Positions 268 to 20,897 of a stretch of 21,647 nucleotides of DNA are shown in pieces. Source of the stretch: a virus; IMG/VR virus record IMGVR_UViG_3300032299_001331, positions 1 through 21,647 of that record; one strand, 5' to 3'. The notes under the pieces were generated by a model. That model saw only the letters and a list, made by a program, of their open reading frames with translations, had not been told where the DNA came from and searched no databases. How positions within the stretch are numbered: the first letter of the stretch is position 1; each line of letters starts with the position of its first letter. The position numbers were made by a program, and so were the translations under genes.

Positions 268-936
268 ATGGCCAATCCACCACCACCATACGACAACATC
301 ACAGGCATAAGCCGTGCTGTGATGAAGGACAACGCACAAGAAACATTAGCTGGCTACGACGGCAATGCTAGACCGGGTGAACTAGTTGTTAATCTAGTGG
401 TTGATCCTCCTGCACTTTACATTGGTAACAATGCTGGCCAACTCACTGCAATCAGCAGCAGCGGCACTACAGCATACGGACAATTTTCAAGCAATGCCAC
501 ACAAACTGTAGCAAGTGCCAACACTGAATATCGGTTCACATTTAACAGCACCGACTTTAGTAATAATGTAGTGTTGGGAACAGGCGCCAGCAATAGTCGT
601 GTCATAATCAACAAAACTGGAATTTACAATATTCAATTCAGCGCACAAGTTGACAAGATTGCAGGTGGTGGTACCACTGCCTCGGGATACATATGGTTCA
701 AGAAAAATGGCACAGCAGTTCCAGCTAGCGCAGGATTTGTGACACTAGACCAAAATCTTCAAGTGGTTCAGAGTTGGAACATTCTTGCCAATGTGGCCAA
801 TGTAGGCGACTATTATGAAATGGCCTATGCCGCCAGTTCAACTGTTTTTAGTTTTCCGACCATAGCAGCAAATGTTGTGATTGGATCTCCAGCAAGTCCA
901 AGTGTCATTGTCACTGTAACACCGGTTGGCACATGA
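268..936 (+). CDS. Fibre-like virion protein with C1q/TNF-like C-terminal domain
   Basis: This 222-residue protein is probably a structural or receptor-binding component of the phage tail or capsid surface. Residues 1-41 (MANPPPPYDNITGISR..., ending NARPGELVV) are nearly repeated in the next gene and probably form an attachment module. Residues about 68-220 are rich in beta strands, Gly, Ser, Thr and Asn, with a pattern typical of C1q-like jelly-roll domains in phage proteins: TEYRFTFNS, then a GIYNIQFSAQV strand, then YIWFKKNGT. There is no signal peptide. The start is the only suitable ATG and follows a late-type motif. The jelly-roll call rests on pattern recognition, not a profile search; the virion role is inferred from this family and from the neighbouring gene. 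Confidence 0.65.
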   Translation: MANPPPPYDNITGISRAVMKDNAQETLAGYDGNARPGELVVNLVVDPPALYIGNNAGQLTAISSSGTTAYGQFSSNATQTVASANTEYRFTFNSTDFSNNVVLGTGASNSRVIINKTGIYNIQFSAQVDKIAGGGTTASGYIWFKKNGTAVPASAGFVTLDQNLQVVQSWNILANVANVGDYYEMAYAASSTVFSFPTIAANVVIGSPASPSVIVTVTPVGT

Positions 937-2233: not shown

Positions 2234-3376
2234 ATGACGAATTTTTACTGTGCAGCCCCCTGGCGTGGACTGCATATCAATCCTCGAGGCGATGTAAAAA
2301 CCTGTTGTGCTGGCGACCCCAACATGCTGGGCAATCTAAACACACAGACCATCGAACAGATCCTCAACAGTGATTTGATGACAGAAATTCGTGGCAGCAT
2401 TGCCCAGGGCCAAAGTCATCAATACTGTTCAAACTGTGTGCAAGCCGAGCGCCATGGCGGTGACTCTGAACGAGCCTGGCACAACCGAGACAATCCCAAT
2501 TTTGATTTTGCCAAGGCCGGCGACAAATATCACTATCCAGTTATTGTTGATATTCGTTGGAACACCACTTGCAATCTAAGTTGCAACTATTGTATGGAAT
2601 ATTGCAGTTCAAAATGGGCCGCGTTGAAAGGCATTCCTGTCAAGTCTGGTGCTAGACCCTACTACGAACAAGTGTGTGACTTCATCGAGCAACATTATGA
2701 ACACATTCACGAAGTAGCTCTGGTCGGCGGCGAGCCGTTGTTGCTGCCAGAAAATAATCGCTTGCTGGACGTGATACCTAAAGATGCAGTTGTTACCTTG
2801 ATTACCAATCTTACCGGCGATCTTGAAAACAATCGAATATTTCAAAAACTAGCAAAACGAAATCGTGTTGGCTGGAGTATGAGCTTTGACAACATAGGCC
2901 CAAGATTAGAATATGTTCGCTATGGCGCTGGTTGGGAAGAAATACAACGCAACCTTGCCCTGGTCAAAAATCTAATGACCACACAGGGACACTCAGGCGG
3001 CATACATGCAGTGTACAACATATACAATGCCACACGCATCTGTGAACTGCGTGAGTTTGCCAAACAGACTGGAACCACTGTGCTATGGCAGAATCTTTTT
3101 CAACCCGACTACCTTGATCCATTCTTGCATGGTCCAGCAGTTGCTGCCGAAGCAACTGCTGAGATTGAGCGCTTTTATGCATCAGGCATTGCTACCGCTG
3201 CTGAACGACTGTTCTTTGACCGTGCATTGCAGAGCTATCGTTCAGTGACCCACCCACGGCCCAATATTGAACATCAGTTTGCACAGCATATTCAACAGAT
3301 TGAAAATCAGTACCACCCAGACTCAAAAGGACAGTTTACAAGTTTGTGGCCTGAACTAGCAACTCTATGCAAATAA
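2234..3376 (+). CDS. Radical SAM protein with N-terminal SPASM/twitch-like cysteines (paralogue 1)
   Basis: This 380-residue protein is a putative radical SAM enzyme. The cluster-binding CxxxCxxC is CNLSCNYC at 113-120, and the GGEP motif is at 165-168. Before the core lies a four-cysteine segment: C6, C24 (followed by C25), C65 and C68, with CAAPWRGLHINPRGDVKTCC, a GN at 33-34 and YCSNC. This resembles the auxiliary-cluster SPASM/twitch motif, which normally follows the core. Two further genes here (9818 and 11316) share the layout. It overlaps the SGNH-like gene by 10 bp and sits in one unit with the terminase, preceded by a late-type motif. The substrate is unknown; peptide or protein modification is a family-based guess. 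Confidence 0.8.
   Translation: MTNFYCAAPWRGLHINPRGDVKTCCAGDPNMLGNLNTQTIEQILNSDLMTEIRGSIAQGQSHQYCSNCVQAERHGGDSERAWHNRDNPNFDFAKAGDKYHYPVIVDIRWNTTCNLSCNYCMEYCSSKWAALKGIPVKSGARPYYEQVCDFIEQHYEHIHEVALVGGEPLLLPENNRLLDVIPKDAVVTLITNLTGDLENNRIFQKLAKRNRVGWSMSFDNIGPRLEYVRYGAGWEEIQRNLALVKNLMTTQGHSGGIHAVYNIYNATRICELREFAKQTGTTVLWQNLFQPDYLDPFLHGPAVAAEATAEIERFYASGIATAAERLFFDRALQSYRSVTHPRPNIEHQFAQHIQQIENQYHPDSKGQFTSLWPELATLCK
3135..3161 (+). repeat. Perfect 11-bp inverted repeat inside the radical SAM gene
   Basis: CAGCAGTTGCT at 3135-3145 is exactly complementary to AGCAACTGCTG at 3151-3161, with the 5-nt loop GCCGA. It lies in an alanine-rich stretch near codon 305. No T-tract follows, so it is not a classical terminator. 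It could be an RNA-processing hairpin or a by-product of GCA/GCT alanine codons. Confidence 0.6.
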
Positions 3377-9211: not shown

Positions 9212-9837
9212 TGCAAACTCCTCTATATACAGAGTTGTTTCCAAATCAGTGTGAAGTGGTAGAGATGCCACTTCACACTCAATGGATTTACTTGATTCAG
9301 AAAAATGGAAGCAGCAGTTTGAGAGGCATTGCCAGAAGAGACAATCTCTCGGTGCTGGTCAACCAACAACTGGAATCTTTAAAATTTGTTGATGTATATG
9401 TTCGTAATCCCAAAGATAGATATGTCAGTGGGGTCAACACCTACCTACAACATTTTCAACGCGATCACCCTGATTTAGATCCTGCTACAGCATTTTGGTT
9501 TGCAAAACATTACAAATTTCTAAATAGTCATTATCTACCGCAGTTTTATTGGCTAGTAAATTTAAGCAAGCACATTGGGGTCAATACCAAAATTAGACTT
9601 AGAAATTTTGAAGACATAGGATCAGTGGCAGCCTGGAACGACAAAGCAGGTGTGGAGCCTCCAGACGATCAGTTTATGAATCGGCTGTTTGAAAATGATA
9701 AAATCATAGAATTATATCTGTTTCTAGATCAAATATTGCTGGATCTAATTGGCAACGAATTTACATGGGCCGAACTGGTAGAACACTATCGCACCAATCA
9801 CGCATTTGTAATTGACCATGTATTGCCCAAGACTTGA
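9211..9837 (+). CDS. Sulfotransferase-like protein
   Basis: This 208-residue protein probably transfers sulfate from PAPS to a sugar or other acceptor. The 5'-phosphosulfate loop appears as IQKNGSSSL at 29-37, and the 3'-phosphate-binding motif as VRNPKDRYVSG at 64-74. Both fit the carbohydrate sulfotransferase families (Sulfotransfer_2-like). It is shorter than cellular homologues and has no membrane anchor. Its ATG overlaps the gp32 stop (TAATG), so translation is coupled to a replication gene. A perfect 12-bp hairpin lies within codons 13-23. Acceptor unknown; candidates are a host or phage glycan, or a product of the adjacent radical SAM enzymes. The fold assignment is fairly confident, the role is not. 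Confidence 0.75.
   Translation: MQTPLYTELFPNQCEVVEMPLHTQWIYLIQKNGSSSLRGIARRDNLSVLVNQQLESLKFVDVYVRNPKDRYVSGVNTYLQHFQRDHPDLDPATAFWFAKHYKFLNSHYLPQFYWLVNLSKHIGVNTKIRLRNFEDIGSVAAWNDKAGVEPPDDQFMNRLFENDKIIELYLFLDQILLDLIGNEFTWAELVEHYRTNHAFVIDHVLPKT
9248..9279 (+). repeat. Perfect 12-bp inverted repeat at the start of the sulfotransferase gene
   Basis: AGTGTGAAGTGG at 9248-9259 is exactly complementary to CCACTTCACACT at 9268-9279, with loop TAGAGATG. It lies 37 nt past the gp32 stop, inside the sulfotransferase reading frame. No T-tract follows. The RNA stem would be stable enough to block 3' exonucleases or slow ribosomes, so it may set gp32 apart from downstream genes. Confidence 0.7.
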
Positions 9838-10783
9838 CCATTTTGTACGTTTTAATCCCAACGGCACAGTGAGTCGTTGCGGACACATGGTGTCGCCTCC
9901 ACAGTTTGAATCACTAGAACAAATGGATTCAAGTGCCTGGCTAGCTGATATCAAAAGCAACTCAGACACATGGCCCAAGGAATGTGTGCGATGTCAACAA
10001 ACAGAACAAATCAACAACACCAGCATAAGACTCAATGCTATAGAATTTGATAAAACACAAACACGTTTGAACTATCTCACAGTTGGCGGAGTATTGGACA
10101 ATATTTGTAACAGTGCTTGTCAATCCTGCAATCAAAATCTAAGTACAAAAATAGGTAGTTTAATATCCAATGACTATCCTATGATAGACAATTCAAAGGC
10201 GTTTTGGCAGCTACCTCTTGAACGAGTGATACATCTAGACATCAACGGCGGCGAACCCAGTGCTAGTAAAAATTATCGCAACATACTCAAAAACATTCCG
10301 TCATCAGTGACCAGTGTCAGGATCAACACCAATTGTTCCAAGGTCATACCAGAAATACAACAGCTATTAGACAACAATGTGCATGTGACGGTTACAGTAA
10401 GCCTGGACGGCATCGGCCGTGTGCATGATTATGTACGCTGGCCTATAAAATGGAATGACTTTGAAAAGAATCTGAACGAATACAAAAAAATGGGTATACA
10501 AGAATTAAACACCTGGACCACTGTGAGTGCTTTGAATATTGGTGACTTGAACAATATTTTTGGATATGCTAAAGAACAGGGACTTGATCACTCCTGGGCA
10601 TTGGTAGCACAACCAGACGTGCTGAATGTAAAATACAGTAATCATTTTACAAGGACAGCTGATGTTCCTGATGTATTAAAAAATATTGTGGCACAGGATC
10701 GAGATAACACAGTTGAATTGCAATTGTGGACATGTCAACAGGATCAGTTGCGCAGCATCAAACTATGGGATTATTTCAAATGA
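9818..10783 (+). CDS. Radical SAM protein with N-terminal SPASM/twitch-like cysteines (paralogue 2)
   Basis: This 321-residue protein has the same plan as the gene at 2234. The N-terminal cysteines are C3, C21, C56 and C59 (CVRC). The radical SAM CxxxCxxC is CNSACQSC at 97-104, and NGGEP is at 143-147. SLDGIGRVHDYVRW in the second half matches radical SAM core strands of the family. A longer frame could begin at a TTG at 9812, but the ATG at 9818 puts the first cysteine at residue 3 and overlaps the sulfotransferase by 20 bp. It ends in an ATGA overlap with the dehydrogenase gene. It is the most diverged of the three copies. Reaction and substrate are unknown. Confidence 0.78.
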   Translation: MYCPRLDHFVRFNPNGTVSRCGHMVSPPQFESLEQMDSSAWLADIKSNSDTWPKECVRCQQTEQINNTSIRLNAIEFDKTQTRLNYLTVGGVLDNICNSACQSCNQNLSTKIGSLISNDYPMIDNSKAFWQLPLERVIHLDINGGEPSASKNYRNILKNIPSSVTSVRINTNCSKVIPEIQQLLDNNVHVTVTVSLDGIGRVHDYVRWPIKWNDFEKNLNEYKKMGIQELNTWTTVSALNIGDLNNIFGYAKEQGLDHSWALVAQPDVLNVKYSNHFTRTADVPDVLKNIVAQDRDNTVELQLWTCQQDQLRSIKLWDYFK

Positions 10784-11319
10784 AGATAGCAATCACTGGC
10801 GGCACAGCAGGAATTGGCCAGGCCCTGGGCAACAAATACGAAGCACTTGGACATGAAGTATTACGACTGAGTCGGCGCACAGGCCATAACATCCGAGTGA
10901 TACCAAAAATGGCCGACGCGATACAATCCTGTGACCTGTTTATTAACAACGCACAGGCAGGCTATGCCCAGACTGAATTGCTATTTGCAATGGCCGATCG
11001 ATGGCGCGGCACCAAAAAACACATCATGGTGATCAGTACTCAAATGACACAATCACCGGTATCAAGTCTTCCTGGGCTGGATATGGATCAGTATAGAATA
11101 CAAAAAGTTACACTGGAAGAATCAGTTCGACAACTACGAAGTCGAGATCTTGACATCAGATTCACTATTGTACGTCCAGGAAACATAGCCACAAGTCCTG
11201 ATAAAACTGTACCTCCAGCAGCTGATGTTGACAATTGGGCCAACACCTTGATTGATATTTTTGAACTAGCTCGAATACAGAATTTACGTATATCGGACAT
11301 TAACCTAGGACCGTTGTGA
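10780..11319 (+). CDS. Short-chain dehydrogenase/reductase (SDR)
   Basis: This 179-residue protein is a probable NAD(P)-dependent oxidoreductase. The Rossmann motif TGGTAGIG is at 6-13, an NNAG-like NNAQAG at 56-61, a likely catalytic Ser at 86 (VIST), and the YxxxK pair is Tyr105-Lys109, followed by RPGN at 132-135. It is shorter than the typical 250 residues and lacks much of the C-terminal substrate-binding region. Upstream ATGs in the same frame exist, but the one at 10780 forms an ATGA overlap with the preceding stop and puts the Rossmann strand at the N-terminus. It sits between two radical SAM genes, suggesting a common pathway. Substrate unknown. Confidence 0.8.
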   Translation: MKIAITGGTAGIGQALGNKYEALGHEVLRLSRRTGHNIRVIPKMADAIQSCDLFINNAQAGYAQTELLFAMADRWRGTKKHIMVISTQMTQSPVSSLPGLDMDQYRIQKVTLEESVRQLRSRDLDIRFTIVRPGNIATSPDKTVPPAADVDNWANTLIDIFELARIQNLRISDINLGPL

Positions 11320-12470
11320 CTCCCAAAGATGTGTTAACCAATCGGAATTTTTGTCCCATGCCATGGACTGGATTGATGTATAATGTTGACGGCAAGGTAA
11401 AAAATTGTATTCGTAGTGCTGGAGAACTAGGTAATCTTAAACATAATACCATTGAAGAAATTCTACACAGTGATATTAATCTTGACACCCAACAACGCAT
11501 GTTGAACAACCAGCCTGGAAAAACTTGTCACACTTGTTATGATCTTGAAGCTGACAAAACAAGTTTTGATATCATCAGTGATAGAATTTTTTACATAAGA
11601 GAACTCAAACAAATACCACTAAGCACTTATCAACTTGATCAACACAACTTACAAACCATTGATGTGCGATGGACCAATTTGTGTAATTTTGCTTGTGTGT
11701 ATTGTAGCTCAGAATTTAGCAGTCGCTGGGCCAATGAATTAAACCAACCGGCGGTTCGTCCAAATTCTGAACAGCTTGCACAGTTTAAACAATATATCTT
11801 TGACCATGCGCCCACGCTTAAACATGTATACATGGCCGGCGGCGAACCCTTGTTGATGAAAGAAAATTTAGAACTATTAGAACTACTGCAAAAAACCAAT
11901 CCCAATGTAAATCTTCGAATCAATACTAACCTGAGCAAAACTCATACTCGAGTGTTTGATAAAATTTGTGAATTTCCCAATGTACACTGGACTGTGAGTG
12001 TGGAAACCACAGCTGATGAGTTCGAATACATAAGATACGGCGGCCGCTGGGAAGATTTTTTAGAAAATTTACAAAAAATAAAACAGCTTGATCATAAAAT
12101 TAGTTTCAACATGCTTTGGTTTTTGTTAAACTACCGTTCTGTATTTGATTGTGTAGACTATCTAAAACATCTGGGGTTCCACAACAACAGTTTTATAATT
12201 GGAGCACTGTTGAGTCCAGAATACCTAAATATTAGACATTTGCCAGAACATGTGTTACAATTCTTAAAGAGCAAGATACAACAGAGAGTCAATGACCATC
12301 CTGGGTATCTTCTCGAAGACAGTTACAAAAACATGTTGAGTTATATACAACAACCGTTTGAAAAAGATCTAGCAGGATCGTTTATCAAGATAAAAGAGTT
12401 GGATCAACGAAGAAACATTGACAGCAGTAAAATTTTTACAGACTTATACAAATTTAAAGAAGGGCATTAA
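11316..12470 (+). CDS. Radical SAM protein with N-terminal SPASM/twitch-like cysteines (paralogue 3)
   Basis: This 384-residue protein resembles the gene at 2234 along its length. N-terminal cysteines are C13, C31, C71 and C74, again with 18 residues between the first two. The segment MPWTGLMYNVDGKVKNC parallels APWRGLHINPRGDVKTC of paralogue 1. The CxxxCxxC is CNFACVYC at 123-130 and GGEP is at 175-178. Both copies share WANEL/WAALK and EYIRYGGRWED/EYVRYGAGWEE type segments. The likely start is a GTG at 11316 overlapping the dehydrogenase stop (GTGA). The gene ends 2 bp before uvsX, so it is probably expressed with recombination genes. Substrate unknown. Confidence 0.8.
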   Translation: MTPKDVLTNRNFCPMPWTGLMYNVDGKVKNCIRSAGELGNLKHNTIEEILHSDINLDTQQRMLNNQPGKTCHTCYDLEADKTSFDIISDRIFYIRELKQIPLSTYQLDQHNLQTIDVRWTNLCNFACVYCSSEFSSRWANELNQPAVRPNSEQLAQFKQYIFDHAPTLKHVYMAGGEPLLMKENLELLELLQKTNPNVNLRINTNLSKTHTRVFDKICEFPNVHWTVSVETTADEFEYIRYGGRWEDFLENLQKIKQLDHKISFNMLWFLLNYRSVFDCVDYLKHLGFHNNSFIIGALLSPEYLNIRHLPEHVLQFLKSKIQQRVNDHPGYLLEDSYKNMLSYIQQPFEKDLAGSFIKIKELDQRRNIDSSKIFTDLYKFKEGH

Positions 12471-12472
12471 TC

Positions 12473-13537
12473 ATGGGCAAACCATTTGACATAAGCAAGT
12501 TCCGCAAGGAAATCACCAAGAGCATCGACGGCCTTAGCATTGGATTCAACGATCCAACTGACTGGGTTGGCACAGGCAACTATGCCTTGAACTATCTGAT
12601 CTCAGGAGACTTCAACCGTGGTATTCCACTGGGCAAGGTCACTGTGTTTGCCGGAGATTCTGGTGCAGGCAAAAGCTACATTTGTTCAGGAAACATTGTG
12701 AAGAACGCACAAGAACAAGGTATCTTTGTGGTGTTAGTCGACAGCGAGAATGCGCTGGACGAATCTTGGTTGCAGGCCTTGGGTGTAGACACCTCAGAAA
12801 GCAAATTGCTCAAGCTGAGTATGGCCATGATCGACGATGTGGCCAAGACTATTGCCACATTCATGAGCGACTACAAGGCACTACCGGATGGTGAACGCCC
12901 CAAGGTCATGTTTGTTATCGACAGTCTGGGCATGTTGCTTACTCCTACTGATGTGAATCAGTTTGAAGCAGGCGAAATGAAGGGTGACCTGGGTCGTAAA
13001 CCCAAAGCACTTACCAGCTTGGTTCGTAACTGTGTGAACATGTTTGGCAGCTACAACGTTGGCATGGTTTGTACCAACCACACCTATGCCAGTCAAGACA
13101 TGTTTGATCCCGATGACAAGATCTCCGGAGGACAGGGTTTCATTTACGCAAGTTCTATCGTGGTTGCTATGAAAAAACTTAAGCTCAAAGAAGACGAAGA
13201 AGGCAACAAAGTTTCTGAAGTCAACGGTATTCGTGCTGCCTGCAAGATCATGAAAACACGATATGCCAAGCCGTTTGAAGGTGTGCAGGTCAAAATTCCT
13301 TACACAACAGGCATGAGTCCGTATTCGGGTCTTACTGATCTCATTGAGAAAAAAGGCCTACTCAAGCGTGAAGGCAATAGCTTGGTGTTTACCACCAGCG
13401 ACGGTGAAATTATCAAGAAGTTCCGCAAGGCCTGGGAAGCCAATACTGATGGTTGTTTGGATGTTGTTATGAAAGACTTTGCCAATCAAAAGAGCGAGGT
13501 AAGTATTCCTGACATTGAACAGGAGGAAAACCAATGA
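12473..13537 (+). CDS. uvsX: UvsX recombinase (RecA-like)
   Basis: This 354-residue protein is the phage strand-exchange recombinase used in recombination-dependent replication and repair. Walker A is GDSGAGKS at 61-68. A hydrophobic strand ending in the Walker B acid is VMFVIDSLG at about 144-152. The segments QGIFVVLVDSENALD and NVGMVCTNHTYAS match the UvsX/RecA core, and a GGQGFIYASS segment corresponds to the DNA-binding loop region. Length is close to that of T4 UvsX (about 390). A purine-rich AAAGAAGGG at 12456-12464 precedes the ATG. The stop overlaps the next gene (ATGA). Position with gp32 and uvsY supports the call. Confidence 0.95.
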   Translation: MGKPFDISKFRKEITKSIDGLSIGFNDPTDWVGTGNYALNYLISGDFNRGIPLGKVTVFAGDSGAGKSYICSGNIVKNAQEQGIFVVLVDSENALDESWLQALGVDTSESKLLKLSMAMIDDVAKTIATFMSDYKALPDGERPKVMFVIDSLGMLLTPTDVNQFEAGEMKGDLGRKPKALTSLVRNCVNMFGSYNVGMVCTNHTYASQDMFDPDDKISGGQGFIYASSIVVAMKKLKLKEDEEGNKVSEVNGIRAACKIMKTRYAKPFEGVQVKIPYTTGMSPYSGLTDLIEKKGLLKREGNSLVFTTSDGEIIKKFRKAWEANTDGCLDVVMKDFANQKSEVSIPDIEQEENQ

Positions 13538-13800: not shown

Positions 13801-14253
13801 ATGTGGTATAATCGGGTAGTTGCAGACTTATCACTGATACCTGACTTTATAACTCATTACGAATCAGAAATAATCTCAGCCAAACGAGATTGTATTATTG
13901 CTGGAGTAGTAGAACGTAATCTCAAAGAGTTGCCGGGCACGACTGAACAGCGATTTTATCAGTTGCAGGAAATTGAGGCAGTGCTAAACTATCTCAATAT
14001 CCAGTTGCGCAAGATACGCAGAAAACACTTTCAGAAATATCTAGAAAATTATCCCAGAGCACTGACCAGCAGAGATGCTGAAAAGTATGTGGATGGTGAG
14101 GACGAAGTCATTGACTACGAAACTATTATCAACGAAGTGGCATTTCTGCGCAATCGCTGGCTGGGCATCATGAAGGGTCTGGAAACCAAGCAGTGGCAAA
14201 TGGGACACATTGTGAAACTCAGAACTGCTGGCATGGAAGATATTTCAGTCTAA
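13801..14253 (+). CDS. uvsY: UvsY-like recombination mediator
   Basis: This 150-residue, mostly helical protein is probably the UvsY mediator, which loads UvsX onto gp32-coated single-stranded DNA. There is no catalytic motif, as expected. Long charged helices (LNYLNIQLRKIRRKHFQKYLENY) are followed by a TSRDAEKYVDGEDEV turn and a C-terminal segment, FLRNRWLGIMKGLETKQWQM then GHIVKLRTAGMEDI, similar in pattern to the C-termini of T4-type UvsY proteins (which end in a GFAIKHIQDMR-like helix). Length is close to that of T4 UvsY (137). Its ATG directly follows the stop codon of the acidic gene, and it closes the replication operon. The call rests on gene order and pattern, since the family is weakly conserved. 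Confidence 0.72.
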   Translation: MWYNRVVADLSLIPDFITHYESEIISAKRDCIIAGVVERNLKELPGTTEQRFYQLQEIEAVLNYLNIQLRKIRRKHFQKYLENYPRALTSRDAEKYVDGEDEVIDYETIINEVAFLRNRWLGIMKGLETKQWQMGHIVKLRTAGMEDISV

Positions 14254-14265
14254 CACTTGGCCACT

Positions 14266-14272
14266 GTAAATA
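14266..14272 (+). promoter_or_regulatory. T4-type late promoter motif (GTAAATA), short-gap class
   Basis: GTAAATA lies after the uvsY stop and ends 5 nt before the ATG at 14278. The context CTGTAAATAC closely repeats that upstream of 2234. It marks the switch from the replication operon to the glycan island. Confidence 0.5.
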
Positions 14273-14277
14273 CCAGT

Positions 14278-15036
14278 ATGAAAATTGTATTAGTAACCGG
14301 GGGTTTTGACCCTGTGCATTCTGGACACATTGCTTATTTTTCTGCTGCTAGAGAACTAGGTGACAAGCTGTATGTTGGCCTCAACAGTGACGCTTGGTTG
14401 CGCCGCAAAAAAGGGTCAGCATTCATGCCTTGGTCTGAACGTGCTGCTGTTGTGGCAGCCATGCATGTGGTTGATCGAGTTATTGAATTTGATGATTCAG
14501 ACGGATCAAGTTGTGCTGCAATCGAAGCAGTGAAACAACTACATCCAGGTCATGAAATTGTCTTTGCCAATGGTGGTGATCGCACACAAGATAACATTCC
14601 CGAAATGCGTGTACCCAACGTGGAGTTTGCGTTTGGCGTTGGCGGCCAAGATAAAAAGAACAGCTCAAGCTGGATTCTGCAAGAGTGGAAGGCCCCCAAA
14701 ACCAGTCGAGCCTGGGGATACTATCGTGTGTTGCACGAAGTGGGTGCCAACACCAAGCTCAAAGAGCTCACGGTCATGCCCAAAACCTGTTTGAGCATGC
14801 AACGCCATGATCAACGTGCAGAGTTTTGGTTTGTGGCCGAAGGCACTGCCACAGTGTACACCTTGGATGAATCCAGCACAGATCCTGACGTCAAGTGTTA
14901 TCTAGATGTGCATGAACACACCTTTATTGAATGTCGCGAATGGCATCAGCTGTGCAACGAAACTGATCAACCATTAAAACTGATTGAGATTCAGTATGGC
15001 GACAACTGCGTCGAAGAAGACATAGAACGCCAATGA
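14278..15036 (+). CDS. Nucleotidyltransferase-cupin fusion for sugar-nucleotide synthesis
   Basis: This 252-residue protein fuses two domains. Residues 1-140 are a cytidylyltransferase-like (HIGH-type) domain with GGFDPVHSGH at 8-17, NSDAWLRRKKG at 36-46 and an NGGDR at 98-102, similar to the sugar-phosphate nucleotidyltransferases of heptose pathways. Residues 141-252 resemble the cupin half of type II mannose-6-phosphate isomerases: SRAWGYYRVL, then LKELTVMP, LSMQRHDQRAEFW with His177 and Glu182, and EWHQL with His223. A TTG at 14257 would add seven residues, but the ATG at 14278 starts the beta strand properly and follows a late-type motif. It overlaps the next gene by ATGA. It probably supplies an activated sugar to the glycosyltransferases downstream; the sugar is not known. 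Confidence 0.8.
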   Translation: MKIVLVTGGFDPVHSGHIAYFSAARELGDKLYVGLNSDAWLRRKKGSAFMPWSERAAVVAAMHVVDRVIEFDDSDGSSCAAIEAVKQLHPGHEIVFANGGDRTQDNIPEMRVPNVEFAFGVGGQDKKNSSSWILQEWKAPKTSRAWGYYRVLHEVGANTKLKELTVMPKTCLSMQRHDQRAEFWFVAEGTATVYTLDESSTDPDVKCYLDVHEHTFIECREWHQLCNETDQPLKLIEIQYGDNCVEEDIERQ

Positions 15037-15716
15037 AGCCAATTCCTGTATTTGTGGGCTATGATCCCAGAGAAGCCATTGCGTATCATACCTGTGTAAA
15101 CAGTATCATTCGAAACAGTTCACAACCTGTGGCCATTGTGCCTGTGGCTTTGAATCTGTTTCAAGACTATGCAGAAACACACACAGACGGATCAAATCAT
15201 TTTATCTACACACGTTTTCTTGTGCCGTATCTAATGGAGTATACTGGTCATGCTATCTTTATAGATGGTGACATGATTGTGCGTGGCGATATTGCTGAAC
15301 TTTGGGCACTGCGAGATCCCAAGATGGACGTGCAGGTGGTCAAACATGACTACAAAACTCGTATGCCTGTAAAATACCTAGGAGCAAAAAATGAAGACTA
15401 TCCTCGAAAAAATTGGAGTAGTGTTATTTTGTGGAATTGTGCTAGCTTTCCTAACCGGCGACTTACTCCCGAGTTCGTCCAACACAGCACCGGCAGTGAG
15501 CTCCACCGCTTCTCGTGGATAGACGACGACCGTATAGGTGCTCTATCTCCTGAATGGAACTGGTTGCCCGATGAATACGGGCCCAATACCGACGCCAGGT
15601 TACTGCACTACACACTTGGCACGCCATGCTTTCAGGAGTTTGCTGATACGCCGCAAGGCAACGAATGGCACAGAGAACGTATCTTAACTGAATACTGCTT
15701 GCAAAGACAAATTTAA
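15033..15716 (+). CDS. Glycosyltransferase, GT-A fold, GT8-like
   Basis: This 227-residue protein probably transfers a sugar from a nucleotide sugar. The N-terminus (PVFVGYDPREAIAYHTCVNSI, residues 5-25) and the segment FIYTRFLVPYLMEY with FIDGDMIVRGDIAELW (57-91) carry the GT8-type layout, with DGD at 78-80 as the metal-binding DxD. Later SSVILWNC and a histidine-containing LLHYTLGTP fit the acceptor and metal-binding side. It is coupled to the nucleotidyltransferase-cupin gene by an ATGA overlap, so the pair may make and use one sugar nucleotide. Its stop shares the TTAA at 15713-15716 with the convergent gene. Donor and acceptor are unknown. Confidence 0.78.
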   Translation: MKPIPVFVGYDPREAIAYHTCVNSIIRNSSQPVAIVPVALNLFQDYAETHTDGSNHFIYTRFLVPYLMEYTGHAIFIDGDMIVRGDIAELWALRDPKMDVQVVKHDYKTRMPVKYLGAKNEDYPRKNWSSVILWNCASFPNRRLTPEFVQHSTGSELHRFSWIDDDRIGALSPEWNWLPDEYGPNTDARLLHYTLGTPCFQEFADTPQGNEWHRERILTEYCLQRQI

Positions 15717-17605: not shown

Positions 17606-18367
17606 ATGAAAGCCTTTATAATTTACCTCCCCCAACGAGAACACAGTGTTCAACACTCTAAACTCATGCTGGATCAACTTCGCGAGTACAACATTGACGC
17701 TGAACTGTTTGAAGGAATACCTGGCGACAAGGCAGTTGCCCTGGCAGCAAGAGCCAAAAAAACACTGTATCCTTACAGCATCAAGAATCGTGTGCTGAGC
17801 AAAGAAGACATCAAAGAGTTGATTCGTCCGGAACTTTATCAAGAGTTTTTGAAAAAACATCAATATCAAATCATAGAACGACAACTGATCGGCGACGACG
17901 GCGCAGGCAAACTGAGTCGCCCGGGCGTGGTTGGTTGTTTCTACAGCCACTACGGTCTTTGGAAAAAATGTATAGATCTGCAAGAACCCATTATGATTTT
18001 TGAAGATGATGTCAAGTTTTATCGAGGATACACTCCTGTGGAGTTTGAGGGTGTGCTGATTCTCAGCCTGGGCAAGAGTTCCTACATGAGTGATCCACAA
18101 AAGACCTATTTGGAAAACCCCACTGGACCTGCAGTTGCTCGCAAGTGGCAAAACTTCAGCATGCCCGGAGCCAGTGGATACGCAATCACTCCTACCGCTG
18201 CTCTGGGCTTGGTCAAGTTTTACAAACCCTACTGGTATCCTGCTGACAATGCAATCAACCAATTTATAACTCCCATACAAATCAGCACATACCTGATGGG
18301 TCGCAACACCTTGCCCGAAGAAGGCAATATATCAATGACCAAATCCAAGGACTGGAAATGCAAGTAG
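17606..18367 (+). CDS. GT25-family glycosyltransferase (LPS-type)
   Basis: This 253-residue protein resembles glycosyltransferase family 25, which includes LPS galactosyltransferases. The N-terminal strand is FIIYLPQRE at 4-12. The core shows GVVGCFYSHYGLWKKC at 107-122, then PIMIFEDDVKF at 128-138 with E133-D-D135 as the acidic motif, and a later PGASGYAITPTAALGL typical of the family. Length is normal. The ATG follows an exact T4 late motif with no Shine-Dalgarno. Its end overlaps the next gene by 10 bp (ATGCAAGTAG). It may build or change a lipo-oligosaccharide-like glycan; acceptor unknown. Confidence 0.82.
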   Translation: MKAFIIYLPQREHSVQHSKLMLDQLREYNIDAELFEGIPGDKAVALAARAKKTLYPYSIKNRVLSKEDIKELIRPELYQEFLKKHQYQIIERQLIGDDGAGKLSRPGVVGCFYSHYGLWKKCIDLQEPIMIFEDDVKFYRGYTPVEFEGVLILSLGKSSYMSDPQKTYLENPTGPAVARKWQNFSMPGASGYAITPTAALGLVKFYKPYWYPADNAINQFITPIQISTYLMGRNTLPEEGNISMTKSKDWKCK

Positions 18368-19266
18368 GAATTTTCTACAACAGCATAAGCAATCCTGCCA
18401 AGTTCTCAAACAAAGTCATGCTGATGGACAACTTTGCACAAGGTGTTAGATCTCAAGGAGACACCATTGTGGAATTTCGCAACAACAGTTTGCCCACTCA
18501 CAAATTAGACGCAGGATTTGTGTTGGGCTACACTCTTGAGGACAACTTTCGTCGAAAGATAATTGATCAATTGCGACTGCAAAAAACGCCATCAGTGTTT
18601 GTGGACAGCAATATCTTGCACTACGGCCGCCAAGAACATGAATGGCACAGATACAGTCTGGGATCAGTGTATCCAGATTCTGGAACTTATTTCTTTGACA
18701 GCCTGGACAAAAACAAATGGGACACGTTCAGTGCCTGGCACGGAGTCAGTTTAAAACCCTGGCGCACTTCAGGCAACCATATTCTTGTTTTTTGCCAGCG
18801 CCCCAAGGGCTTTAACATGTTTACTGATCAAGAAGTGTGGTTGGACAAAACACTCACTCGTATTCGCAAGTGCAGCTCACGGCCCATCATGATTCGCATG
18901 CACCCAGGCGACGGGGCTAGGCTTAAACAAATAGAAAAAATAAAAAAGAAATACAGCAACGGGGTCGCTATTTCAGAACATGCAAACATCCGTGACGCAC
19001 TGGTGGACTGCTGGTGTACCATTGGGCTAAATTCAACACCCAATGTGGTGGCTGCCATTGAAGGGATTCCTGGATACATATCAGATCCTGTACACAGCTG
19101 GGCTGCTGACGTTGCGTTCAATGATATCAGCCTGATAGAAACGCCACCGCTGCTGGACAGGTCAGAGTGGATTCATAAAATTGCCAACATACACTGGTCA
19201 AATGATGAAGTCAAATCTGGCAAACTCTGGACCGCAATCAAGCGATATATTTCTGCTTCTCGTTGA
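18358..19266 (+). CDS. Putative GT-B-type capsule/LPS glycosyltransferase (paralogue A)
   Basis: This 302-residue protein has the look of a GT-B transferase of the capsule-polysaccharide (KpsS/KpsC-like) kind. SRPIMIRMHPGD at 174-185 and DCWCTIGLNSTPNV with VAAIEGIPGYIS at 217-242 would be the nucleotide-sugar-binding half. The gene at 20052 carries equivalent blocks (SDRPIVIRPHPRS; YNSGPGIQAAIAGARPVV) at the same relative distance, so the two share ancestry. There is no signal peptide. Its start overlaps the GT25 gene by 10 bp, suggesting coupled translation. Its last 29 bp overlap the convergent gene. The superfamily call is moderate; donor sugar and exact family are not determined. Confidence 0.6.
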   Translation: MQVGIFYNSISNPAKFSNKVMLMDNFAQGVRSQGDTIVEFRNNSLPTHKLDAGFVLGYTLEDNFRRKIIDQLRLQKTPSVFVDSNILHYGRQEHEWHRYSLGSVYPDSGTYFFDSLDKNKWDTFSAWHGVSLKPWRTSGNHILVFCQRPKGFNMFTDQEVWLDKTLTRIRKCSSRPIMIRMHPGDGARLKQIEKIKKKYSNGVAISEHANIRDALVDCWCTIGLNSTPNVVAAIEGIPGYISDPVHSWAADVAFNDISLIETPPLLDRSEWIHKIANIHWSNDEVKSGKLWTAIKRYISASR

Positions 19267-20051: not shown

Positions 20052-20897
20052 GTGATCAAATCTCTAGCTTATTTTCCCTTGCAAGTGGCACTGAATGGCA
20101 AGTCAATAATGAATTCTTTTTTGGATTATTGTCAGGCTGTCAAAATACAAACACAAGAAAATTCCATGACAGCAGATGCTGCTGTGATATGGAGTGTGCT
20201 GTGGCACGGTCGCTTGTTTGCAAATCAAGCAGTATACGAGCACTACCGATCGCAAAACAAACCAGTTATCATAATAGAAGTAGGTGCGCTGTATCGTGGC
20301 AATACCTGGAAGATTGCAGTGAATCATGTGAACGCACAAGGCTATTACGGCCATCAGGAGAATCTGGACTGGGATCGTCCACGTAAATTAAAGATAAGTC
20401 TTGCTACTCAATTGCTGCCACGCCCTGAAATCATTATCGCTGCGCAACATCAGCACAGTTTGCAAGTGGAATCAATTGAACCCAATTGGATTCAGAATCA
20501 AATAGATCAAATCAAAAAGGTGTCTGACCGACCCATCGTAATTCGTCCACACCCTAGATCAGTTCTGGTTCTGGACCATTTGCCCCCGGGAGTCACCGTT
20601 GAAAGGCCCAACAAAGTTGCTGGGTCATACGACAGCTATGACATGCACTACGACTGTCATGCTGTGGTCAACTACAATTCAGGTCCTGGCATACAAGCTG
20701 CAATAGCAGGGGCACGACCTGTGGTGGATGCATCCAGTCTAGCACATGCTGTGGCAATTGATTATGCTGACCTGGAAAAACCCTACACTGTTGACAGAGA
20801 TCTGTGGCTCACACAAATATGCCACACTGAATACACTGTGGAAGAAATACAACAAGGCCTATGGCTAAAACGAATAGAATCAGCGCTGACGGCATAA
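20052..20897 (+). CDS. Putative GT-B-type capsule/LPS glycosyltransferase (paralogue B)
   Basis: This 281-residue protein shares with the gene at 18358 the blocks SDRPIVIRPHPRS (158-170) and DCHAVVNYNSGPGI with AAIAGARPVVD (201-226), the probable nucleotide-sugar-binding half of a GT-B transferase like those of capsule export clusters. The N-terminal halves are much less alike, as expected for different acceptors. The start is taken as the GTG at 20052, right after the palindromic motif; the ATG at 20109 is an alternative. Its end overlaps the next gene by 37 bp. Polymer and donor are unknown. Confidence 0.6.
   Translation: MIKSLAYFPLQVALNGKSIMNSFLDYCQAVKIQTQENSMTADAAVIWSVLWHGRLFANQAVYEHYRSQNKPVIIIEVGALYRGNTWKIAVNHVNAQGYYGHQENLDWDRPRKLKISLATQLLPRPEIIIAAQHQHSLQVESIEPNWIQNQIDQIKKVSDRPIVIRPHPRSVLVLDHLPPGVTVERPNKVAGSYDSYDMHYDCHAVVNYNSGPGIQAAIAGARPVVDASSLAHAVAIDYADLEKPYTVDRDLWLTQICHTEYTVEEIQQGLWLKRIESALTA

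What the first reader, a model, noticed from the sequence alone, without database searches (positions are those of the whole stretch)
14278..15036. Nucleotidyltransferase fused to a mannose-isomerase-type cupin
An HxGH cytidylyltransferase domain (residues 1-140) is joined to a cupin (141-252) resembling the C-terminal half of type II phosphomannose isomerase. The classical ManC/AlgA enzyme joins a different, GT-A-type guanylyltransferase domain to this cupin, so this is a swap of the activating domain. It may be a compact phage route to an unusual NDP-sugar.
Basis: partly seen in the sequence, partly recalled or inferred. Interest (0 to 1): 0.58.

Follow-up and report, generated by a model that had tools for sequence, protein, structure and literature searches.

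The report
Phage and SAR11 mannose-activating fusion enzyme
A small two-part enzyme, carried by many aquatic phages and by nearly all sampled SAR11 ocean bacteria, probably makes activated mannose the way the classical enzyme ManC does, but with an unrelated activating half, which would be a second, unrecognised way of making this basic sugar donor.

Summary
In detail: window 14278-15033 is one 252-aa ORF with an HxGH nucleotidyltransferase (NT) domain joined to a type II phosphomannose-isomerase (PMI) cupin. It is not a chance or phage-only fusion. All 80 kept IMG/VR loci hold it intact; full-length copies occur in SAR86 and in 48 of 53 sampled SAR11-family genomes. The cupin keeps every residue invariant in the ManC cupins sampled here; its best structural match is a solved archaeal PMI. 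In 28 host genomes carrying it, no ManC-type guanylyltransferase domain was found, yet 14 encode GDP-mannose 4,6-dehydratase; in the two SAR11 ones examined closely the only GT-A nucleotidyltransferases found are GlmU, RmlA-like and MurU-like, though the genomes are incomplete. In the SAR86 order, canonical ManC (18 genomes) and the fusion (104) never co-occur in 199 genomes. Best reading: a ManC analogue that isomerises Fru-6-P/Man-6-P and activates mannose-1-P, most likely with GTP, the GT-A domain replaced by an HxGH domain. In phages it is usually followed by a glycosyltransferase and preceded by a late-promoter-like motif. The domain swap is supported; 'phage route to an unusual sugar' is not. 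Activity and nucleotide remain inferred. Ten literature searches found no description.

The parts
14278..15036 (+). NT-cupin fusion gene (252 aa plus stop)
14278..14697 (+). HxGH nucleotidyltransferase domain, residues 1-140
   Evidence: PF01467; TagD 2b7l Z 15.3, 3glv Z 15.2, HldC 5xf2 Z 14.8
14317..14328 (+). HSGH motif, residues 14-17
   Evidence: H14 and H17 invariant in 81 of 81 phage and 40 of 40 host-collection copies
14653..14670 (+). K-x-N-S-S-S motif, residues 126-131, at the place of the second nucleotide motif of this fold (role recalled)
   Evidence: K126, N128-S131 invariant in 81 of 81 and 40 of 40
14698..15033 (+). type II PMI cupin, residues 141-252
   Evidence: PF01050; Thermococcus PMI 7zvy Z 15.7 and 7zvm Z 15.5
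14800..14829 (+). QxHxxRxExW motif, residues 175-184, with three putative metal ligands Q175, H177, E182, and R180
   Evidence: Q175, H177, R180, E182, W184 invariant in 81 of 81 and 40 of 40 and in the 6 canonical ManC cupins aligned
14944..14946 (+). H223, fourth putative metal ligand
   Evidence: invariant
14265..14272 (+). TGTAAATA, late-promoter-like element directly before the gene
   Evidence: TAAATA at -11 in 68 of 81 phage copies; majority sequence -13..-6 is TATAAATA
15033..15716 (+). GT8-like glycosyltransferase, start overlaps the fusion's stop (ATGA); likely user of the product
   Evidence: PF01501 E 1.8e-7; directly downstream in 58 of 71 viral loci with room
13801..14253 (+). 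UvsY-like recombination mediator, upstream neighbour
   Evidence: phrog_231 E 3.2e-13
12473..13537 (+). UvsX-like recombinase (T4-type core gene, context)
   Evidence: phrog_97 E 3.8e-67; PF00154

Best explanation
The protein is a functional analogue of the bifunctional ManC/AlgA enzyme. Its C-terminal metal cupin interconverts fructose-6-phosphate and mannose-6-phosphate (inferred from homology to type II PMI). A phosphomannomutase supplied by the cell (or the infected host) makes mannose-1-phosphate. The N-terminal HxGH domain then couples mannose-1-phosphate to a nucleotide, most likely GTP, giving GDP-mannose and pyrophosphate (inferred from the missing guanylyltransferase in genomes that encode GDP-mannose 4,6-dehydratase). 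In SAR11 and SAR86 this feeds GDP-mannose and, where present, GDP-fucose. In phages the gene appears to be read late and in one unit with a glycosyltransferase that would use the product, probably to decorate virion or cell-surface material. Shown: the fusion, its conservation, its distribution, the intact cupin motifs, the pathway gap in the genomes held. Inferred: both activities, the nucleotide, the phage role.
For: (1) In an alignment of fused cupins with 6 canonical SAR86 ManC cupins the shared invariant residues include Q175, H177, R180, E182, W184, H223, E246, D248, R251; best fold match is a solved PMI, which is also the best PDB sequence hit of the SAR11 cupin, E 3.2e-4. (2) TIGR01479 (ManC) in 28 host genomes matches only cupin positions 356-467; 0 of 28 show the guanylyltransferase part. 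GDP-mannose 4,6-dehydratase is over cut-off in 14 of those 28; in G020 and G022 a GDP-fucose-synthase-like gene lies next to it. (3) In G020 and G022 all PF00483 proteins classify as GlmU, RmlA-like or MurU-like, and in G025 as GlmU and GalU-like. (4) A second PGM/PMM-family protein besides the GlmM-sized one occurs in most genomes; two tested are closest to PgmG phosphoglucomutase/phosphomannomutase, below cut-off. (5) SAR86 order: 18 genomes with a canonical ManC part, 104 with a fusion-sized cupin ORF, 0 with both of 199, 9.4 expected; 25 of 25 sampled such ORFs carry the HxGH domain (24 by pattern, L161 by eye). (6) Phages: dehydratase at 354 bits or more in 4 of 21 fusion-bearing records; cyanophage S-SCSM1 has a stand-alone PMI cupin about 1 kb from such a gene.
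Against: The fusion is in all 28 surveyed genomes (chosen for it) while the dehydratase passes its cut-off in 14, so co-occurrence alone proves nothing. Host genomes are single-cell or metagenome assemblies, so absences are soft. MurU-like proteins are relatives of guanylyltransferases and could do the job; several of the 14 genomes have further PF00483 proteins that I did not classify. Other GT-A families (PF12804), type I PMI and PGI/PMI were not searched. The nearest characterised NT domain, HldE/HldC, acts on a beta sugar phosphate (recalled), whereas the usual GDP-mannose is alpha. The exclusion count is not corrected for kinship and rests on a truncated listing. 17 of 21 phage records showed no strong dehydratase, and no mutase homologue was found within the 80 viral loci. 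Five of 53 SAR11-family genomes lack a full copy.
Confidence: 0.55

Rival explanations
1. Mannose-1-phosphate is activated, but with another nucleotide (ADP-, CDP- or UDP-mannose), used directly by glycosyltransferases such as the GT8-like neighbour.
For: HxGH relatives mostly use CTP or ATP (recalled); closest curated model is an adenylyltransferase domain; fusion present also where the GDP-mannose dehydratase is absent.
Against: Leaves GDP-mannose supply unexplained in the 14 of 28 genomes with the dehydratase and no ManC-type guanylyltransferase found.
Confidence: 0.18
2. A heptose enzyme: the cupin replaces GmhA (sedoheptulose-7-P to manno-heptose-7-P) and the NT makes ADP- or GDP-heptose.
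For: NT nearest to the HldE C-terminal domain (E 1.6e-20) and close to HldC in structure (Z 14.8); manno-heptose and mannose share ring configuration (recalled).
Against: Canonical HldA kinase over cut-off in 2 of 28 fusion-bearing genomes; the separate HldE-C-like protein found in 3 of 29 scores more than twice as high to that model; the cupin is PMI-type.
Confidence: 0.1
3. The cupin is not an isomerase here but a sugar-binding or regulatory domain, and the NT activates some other alcohol phosphate (glycerol-3-P-like).
For: The second His of HxH is lost in most copies; TagD is among the top fold matches of the NT.
Against: That His also varies in canonical SAR86 ManC (L133-L136), while all putative ligands and R180 are kept.
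Confidence: 0.12

Closest known systems
ManC/AlgA/XanB, bifunctional mannose-1-P guanylyltransferase / mannose-6-P isomerase (TIGR01479)
   Same: Same C-terminal cupin with the shared invariant residues; NT domain in front; single gene; mutually exclusive with the fusion in the SAR86 order.
   Different: GT-A guanylyltransferase domain absent; an unrelated HxGH domain of about 140 aa stands in its place.
HldE C-terminal domain / HldC, D-glycero-beta-D-manno-heptose-1-P adenylyltransferase (TIGR02199)
   Same: Same HxGH fold family, closest curated profile and among the top solved structures.
   Different: 73 bits against a cut-off of 181.5; partner is a PMI cupin, not the HldA kinase; heptose kinase mostly absent from carriers.
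TagD/GCT glycerol-3-P cytidylyltransferase
   Same: Fold and HxGH motif (Z 15.3 to 2b7l).
   Different: Model score far below cut-off (40 against 165 bits); no cupin.
Stand-alone NT of cyanophages S-SSM7, Sf-FS3, P-TIM68
   Same: NT domain about 51-56% identical over residues 2/3-137.
   Different: No cupin in the same gene; S-SCSM2R has NT and PMI cupin as separate, distant genes.
Stand-alone archaeal cupin PMI (7zvy, 7zvm)
   Same: Best fold match of the cupin (Z 15.7 and 15.5).
   Different: No NT domain.

Membership tests
ManC/AlgA (TIGR01479) | GT-A (NTP_transferase, PF00483) guanylyltransferase domain | tested here: not met
   No PF00483 hit in the protein; TIGR01479 aligns only to positions 358-460
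ManC/AlgA (TIGR01479) | Curated whole-protein score cut-off | tested here: not met
   64.3 bits against 372.95
ManC/AlgA (TIGR01479) | C-terminal type II PMI cupin | tested here: met
   PF01050 73.7 bits against 23.6; invariant residues shared with 6 canonical ManC
ManC/AlgA (TIGR01479) | Mannose-1-P guanylyltransferase and mannose-6-P isomerase activity | not testable with these tools
   Pathway gap and mutual exclusion only
Type II PMI cupin domain (PF01050) | Cupin fold with QxHx4E...H ligand set | tested here: met
   AF2 model and VIA-align; Q175, H177, E182, H223 invariant. That these bind metal is inferred
HldE-C / HldC (TIGR02199) | Curated score cut-off | tested here: not met
   73.4 bits against 181.5
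HldE-C / HldC (TIGR02199) | Works with heptose-7-P kinase HldA and isomerase GmhA in the same genome | tested here: not met
   HldA over cut-off in 2 of 28; SIS_2 at 47 bits or more in 9 of 29
HxGH nucleotidyltransferase superfamily (PF01467) | HxGH motif and Rossmann-like fold | tested here: met
   50.2 bits against 21; H14 and H17 invariant; fold matches
TagD (TIGR01518) | Curated score cut-off | tested here: not met
   40.1 bits against 165.4

The most novel reading that the evidence does not exclude
A second, non-homologous class of mannose-1-phosphate guanylyltransferase, built on the HxGH fold and fused to a type II PMI cupin: nearly universal in the sampled SAR11 family, replacing ManC in much of SAR86, and carried by large numbers of aquatic T4-like phages as a late-expressed donor-supply gene next to a glycosyltransferase.
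Probability: 0.48. Interest if true: 0.75.

Novelty: new variant of a known kind. Interest (0 to 1): 0.62.

Why it matters
GDP-mannose is a core sugar donor, and its synthesis is described as the work of GT-A pyrophosphorylases (recalled). If an HxGH enzyme does it in SAR11, one of the most abundant bacterial groups in the ocean (recalled), a gap in these genomes closes and a gene of unassigned function gets a directly testable one. It would also say that many aquatic phages bring their own activated-mannose supply for glycan decoration.

Tried and rejected
Chance fusion or assembly error: rejected (80 of 80 loci; host copies). Degenerate, inactive cupin because the second His of HxH is missing: rejected after aligning canonical SAR86 ManC, where that position also varies and Q-x-H-x4-E fits the cupin spacing better. 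Heptose pathway as the general role: weakened. Phage defence role: no PADLOC match at E 0.01. Structured RNA next to the gene: no Rfam family other than tRNA at gathering threshold in 8 sources. Link to DNA synthesis because SAR11 copies follow polA and cyanophage NT copies follow gp43: left as an oddity, since SAR86 copies sit elsewhere. Pseudomonas phage Y5 hit: the cupin motif lies in a 550-codon open frame whose N-terminus I did not classify further, so it is not counted as the fusion. Literature: ten searches gave no description of this architecture in the open-licence library; most subscription papers are not held. PMC8231724 (passages) tests a SAR11 glycosyltransferase with UDP-sugars; in those passages GDP-mannose is not among the donors bought or tested. 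PMC8066274 (one passage) reports gmd, fcl and algA on Lake Baikal phage scaffolds; whether its algA is this fusion was not checked. PMC7304191 (passages) was not useful. Of the other papers I saw only the search listings.

Full report
What is there. The window is a 21.6-kb fragment of a T4-like phage: terminase, gp32-like, UvsX-like and UvsY-like proteins are recognisable, and it is held as a virus record. Between the UvsY-like gene and a GT8-like glycosyltransferase lies the ORF 14278-15036. It encodes 252 residues with an HxGH nucleotidyltransferase domain (PF01467, residues 6-105) and a type II PMI cupin (PF01050, residues 141-251).

Reality of the fusion. Over the window and the 80 loci, 105 positions are conserved in at least 99% of copies. 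A scan of GTDB genome contigs gave 42 relatives, mostly SAR86 and Pelagibacteraceae, about 50% identical over the full length in nearly all; one row is truncated by a contig end and one weak row has no full open frame. L087/L089 and L105 look like phage sequence inside bins, since a GT8-like gene or virion-like genes follow (inference). Both sets share the HxGH motif, K44-K45, E54-R55, D101-R102, K126, N128-S131 in the first half, and Q175, H177, R180, E182, W184, H223 in the second. On a 41-row tree the phage copies form one side of a branch (96/92) and so do the five SAR11 copies (100/97).

Host distribution. In the family of genome G008 (SAR11) 48 of 53 genomes have a full copy, one has a piece at a contig start and four have only weak matches to other proteins. 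In all 19 SAR11 loci the gene directly follows the same gene, identified as polA in L098, and precedes a transporter. In SAR86 it stands in several places: between pntB and gyrA, after uvrC and a CDP-alcohol phosphatidyltransferase with a Wzz gene downstream, or after a membrane transporter (the last by eye). A gene that is single, mobile in position and retained in small genomes is likely to be self-sufficient (inference).

The cupin. AlphaFold2 on a 45-sequence alignment gives pLDDT 90.8. The best solved match is Thermococcus phosphomannose isomerase 7zvy (Z 15.7, rmsd 2.2, 108 aligned), although many cupins follow closely, so the fold alone does not fix the function. The sharper test is the alignment with six canonical ManC cupins taken from SAR86 genomes: the columns invariant in that mixed alignment are WG, a K, Q-x-H-x-x-R-x-E-x-W, a G, the later H, and the end E-x-D-I-x-R. 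The spacing Q-x-H-x4-E-x6-G corresponds to the metal-binding cupin motif, and Q/H/E/H are the zinc ligands of type I PMI (both recalled). The second His of HxH, missing in most fused cupins, is also missing in some canonical ManC.

The NT domain. It is closest in curated models to the HldE adenylyltransferase domain (73.4 bits) but far below that model's cut-off, and in structure to TagD, 3glv and HldC (Z 14.8-15.3). Nucleotide and sugar cannot be read from this.

The pathway gap. In 28 genomes carrying the fusion, the ManC model matches only the cupin part, never the guanylyltransferase part, although the same search finds canonical ManC in related genomes. GDP-mannose 4,6-dehydratase passes its strict cut-off in 14 of the 28. 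In the two SAR11 genomes examined closely (G020, G022) a protein close to GDP-fucose synthase lies next to it (459 and 471 bits, cut-off 500). The PF00483 proteins there are GlmU (over cut-off), an RmlA-like protein in G020 (282 bits, cut-off 361) and a MurU-like protein; in G022 the latter stands beside an AmgK-like kinase and TsaE-like gene, the usual MurU setting (the AmgK pairing is recalled). In G025 (SAR86) they are GlmU and a GalU-like protein just under its cut-off; in G011 one is MurU over cut-off and the other was not classified. Some of the other dehydratase-bearing genomes have further PF00483 proteins that I did not classify. A second PGM/PMM-family protein accompanies the GlmM-sized one in most genomes; the two classified score best to PgmG, below cut-off. 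So the cupin, a mutase and the NT together would complete Fru-6-P to GDP-mannose. Heptose enzymes are mostly absent: HldA over cut-off in 2 of 28, a strong separate HldE-C-like protein in 3 of 29.

Mutual exclusion. In 199 genomes of the SAR86 order, 18 show a ManC guanylyltransferase part and 104 a PMI cupin in an ORF of 245-300 aa; none shows both, against 9.4 expected (naive hypergeometric 6.6e-7). I fetched 25 of the 104: 24 match both motifs by pattern and the 25th (L161) begins with ASGGFDPLHSGH, so all 25 carry the HxGH domain. Canonical ManC sits beside dehydratase-like genes in L131-L133 and beside fucose-synthase-like genes in L131 and L133 (by eye). The count ignores kinship among genomes, and the printed list was truncated.

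Phage context. In 58 of 71 viral loci with enough downstream DNA the GT8-like gene follows directly; the fusion's stop codon is overlapped as ATGA in 72 of 80. In 68 of 81 copies TAAATA lies exactly at -11 from the start, and the majority sequence at -13 to -6 is TATAAATA, the T4 late promoter element (recalled). This predicts late expression with transcription starting close to the start codon (inference). Of 21 larger fusion-bearing phage records, one has the dehydratase over cut-off and three at 354-404 bits; in G264 and G265 it lies about 6-7 kb from the fusion in one glycosylation cluster. G264 and G265 share their gene order and may be near-copies of one phage, so these are perhaps three independent cases. 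Cyanophage S-SCSM1 has a separate PMI cupin near dehydratase and epimerase genes; S-SCSM2R carries NT and PMI cupin as two distant genes, and single-cell virus AG-345-D19 carries them on two contigs, which suggests that the two domains work in one pathway even when not fused.

Verdict. A domain-swapped ManC analogue is the best-supported reading. It is not a member of the ManC family, because the defining guanylyltransferase domain is absent, but it probably works like one. Enzymology is missing, the guanylyl specificity rests on pathway logic in incomplete genomes, and the anomer question is open.

Noticed in passing
window 14265-14272 and the same place in 68 of 81 phage copies: TAAATA exactly 11 bases before the start codon, majority TATAAATA, suggesting a late promoter that would give a nearly leaderless transcript. 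The window gene at 2234 has nearly the same spacing.
   Followed up: partly
L098 5188-8765; L083 3491-6447; L081 5325-8447: The SAR11 fusion overlaps the end of polA, and the cyanophage NT-only gene overlaps or closely follows the gp43 DNA polymerase. The shared neighbourhood with DNA polymerases is unexplained.
   Followed up: partly
window 2234-3376, 9812-10783, 11316-12470: Three radical SAM proteins in one phage stretch, two with a SPASM domain before, not after, the radical SAM core.
   Followed up: no
window 268-936 and 952-1767: Two neighbouring genes share a nearly identical N-terminus (MANPPPPYDNITGISRA); the second has repeats like a trimeric adhesin head. A shorter ORF with a similar start occurs in another fusion-bearing phage.
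   Followed up: no
window 18358-19266 and 20052-20897: Two proteins without Pfam or PHROGs match whose relatives in other phages hit both of them, so they are likely paralogues; relatives are frequent in the viral loci (57 and 43 of 80).
   Followed up: no
L186 5317-5403 (S-SCSM1): An annotated wcaG RNA lies between the stand-alone PMI cupin and the dehydratase gene, a possible regulatory element of phage GDP-sugar genes.
   Followed up: no
L038 173-7219: 22 tRNA genes clustered around the fusion in this 152-kb phage record.
   Followed up: no
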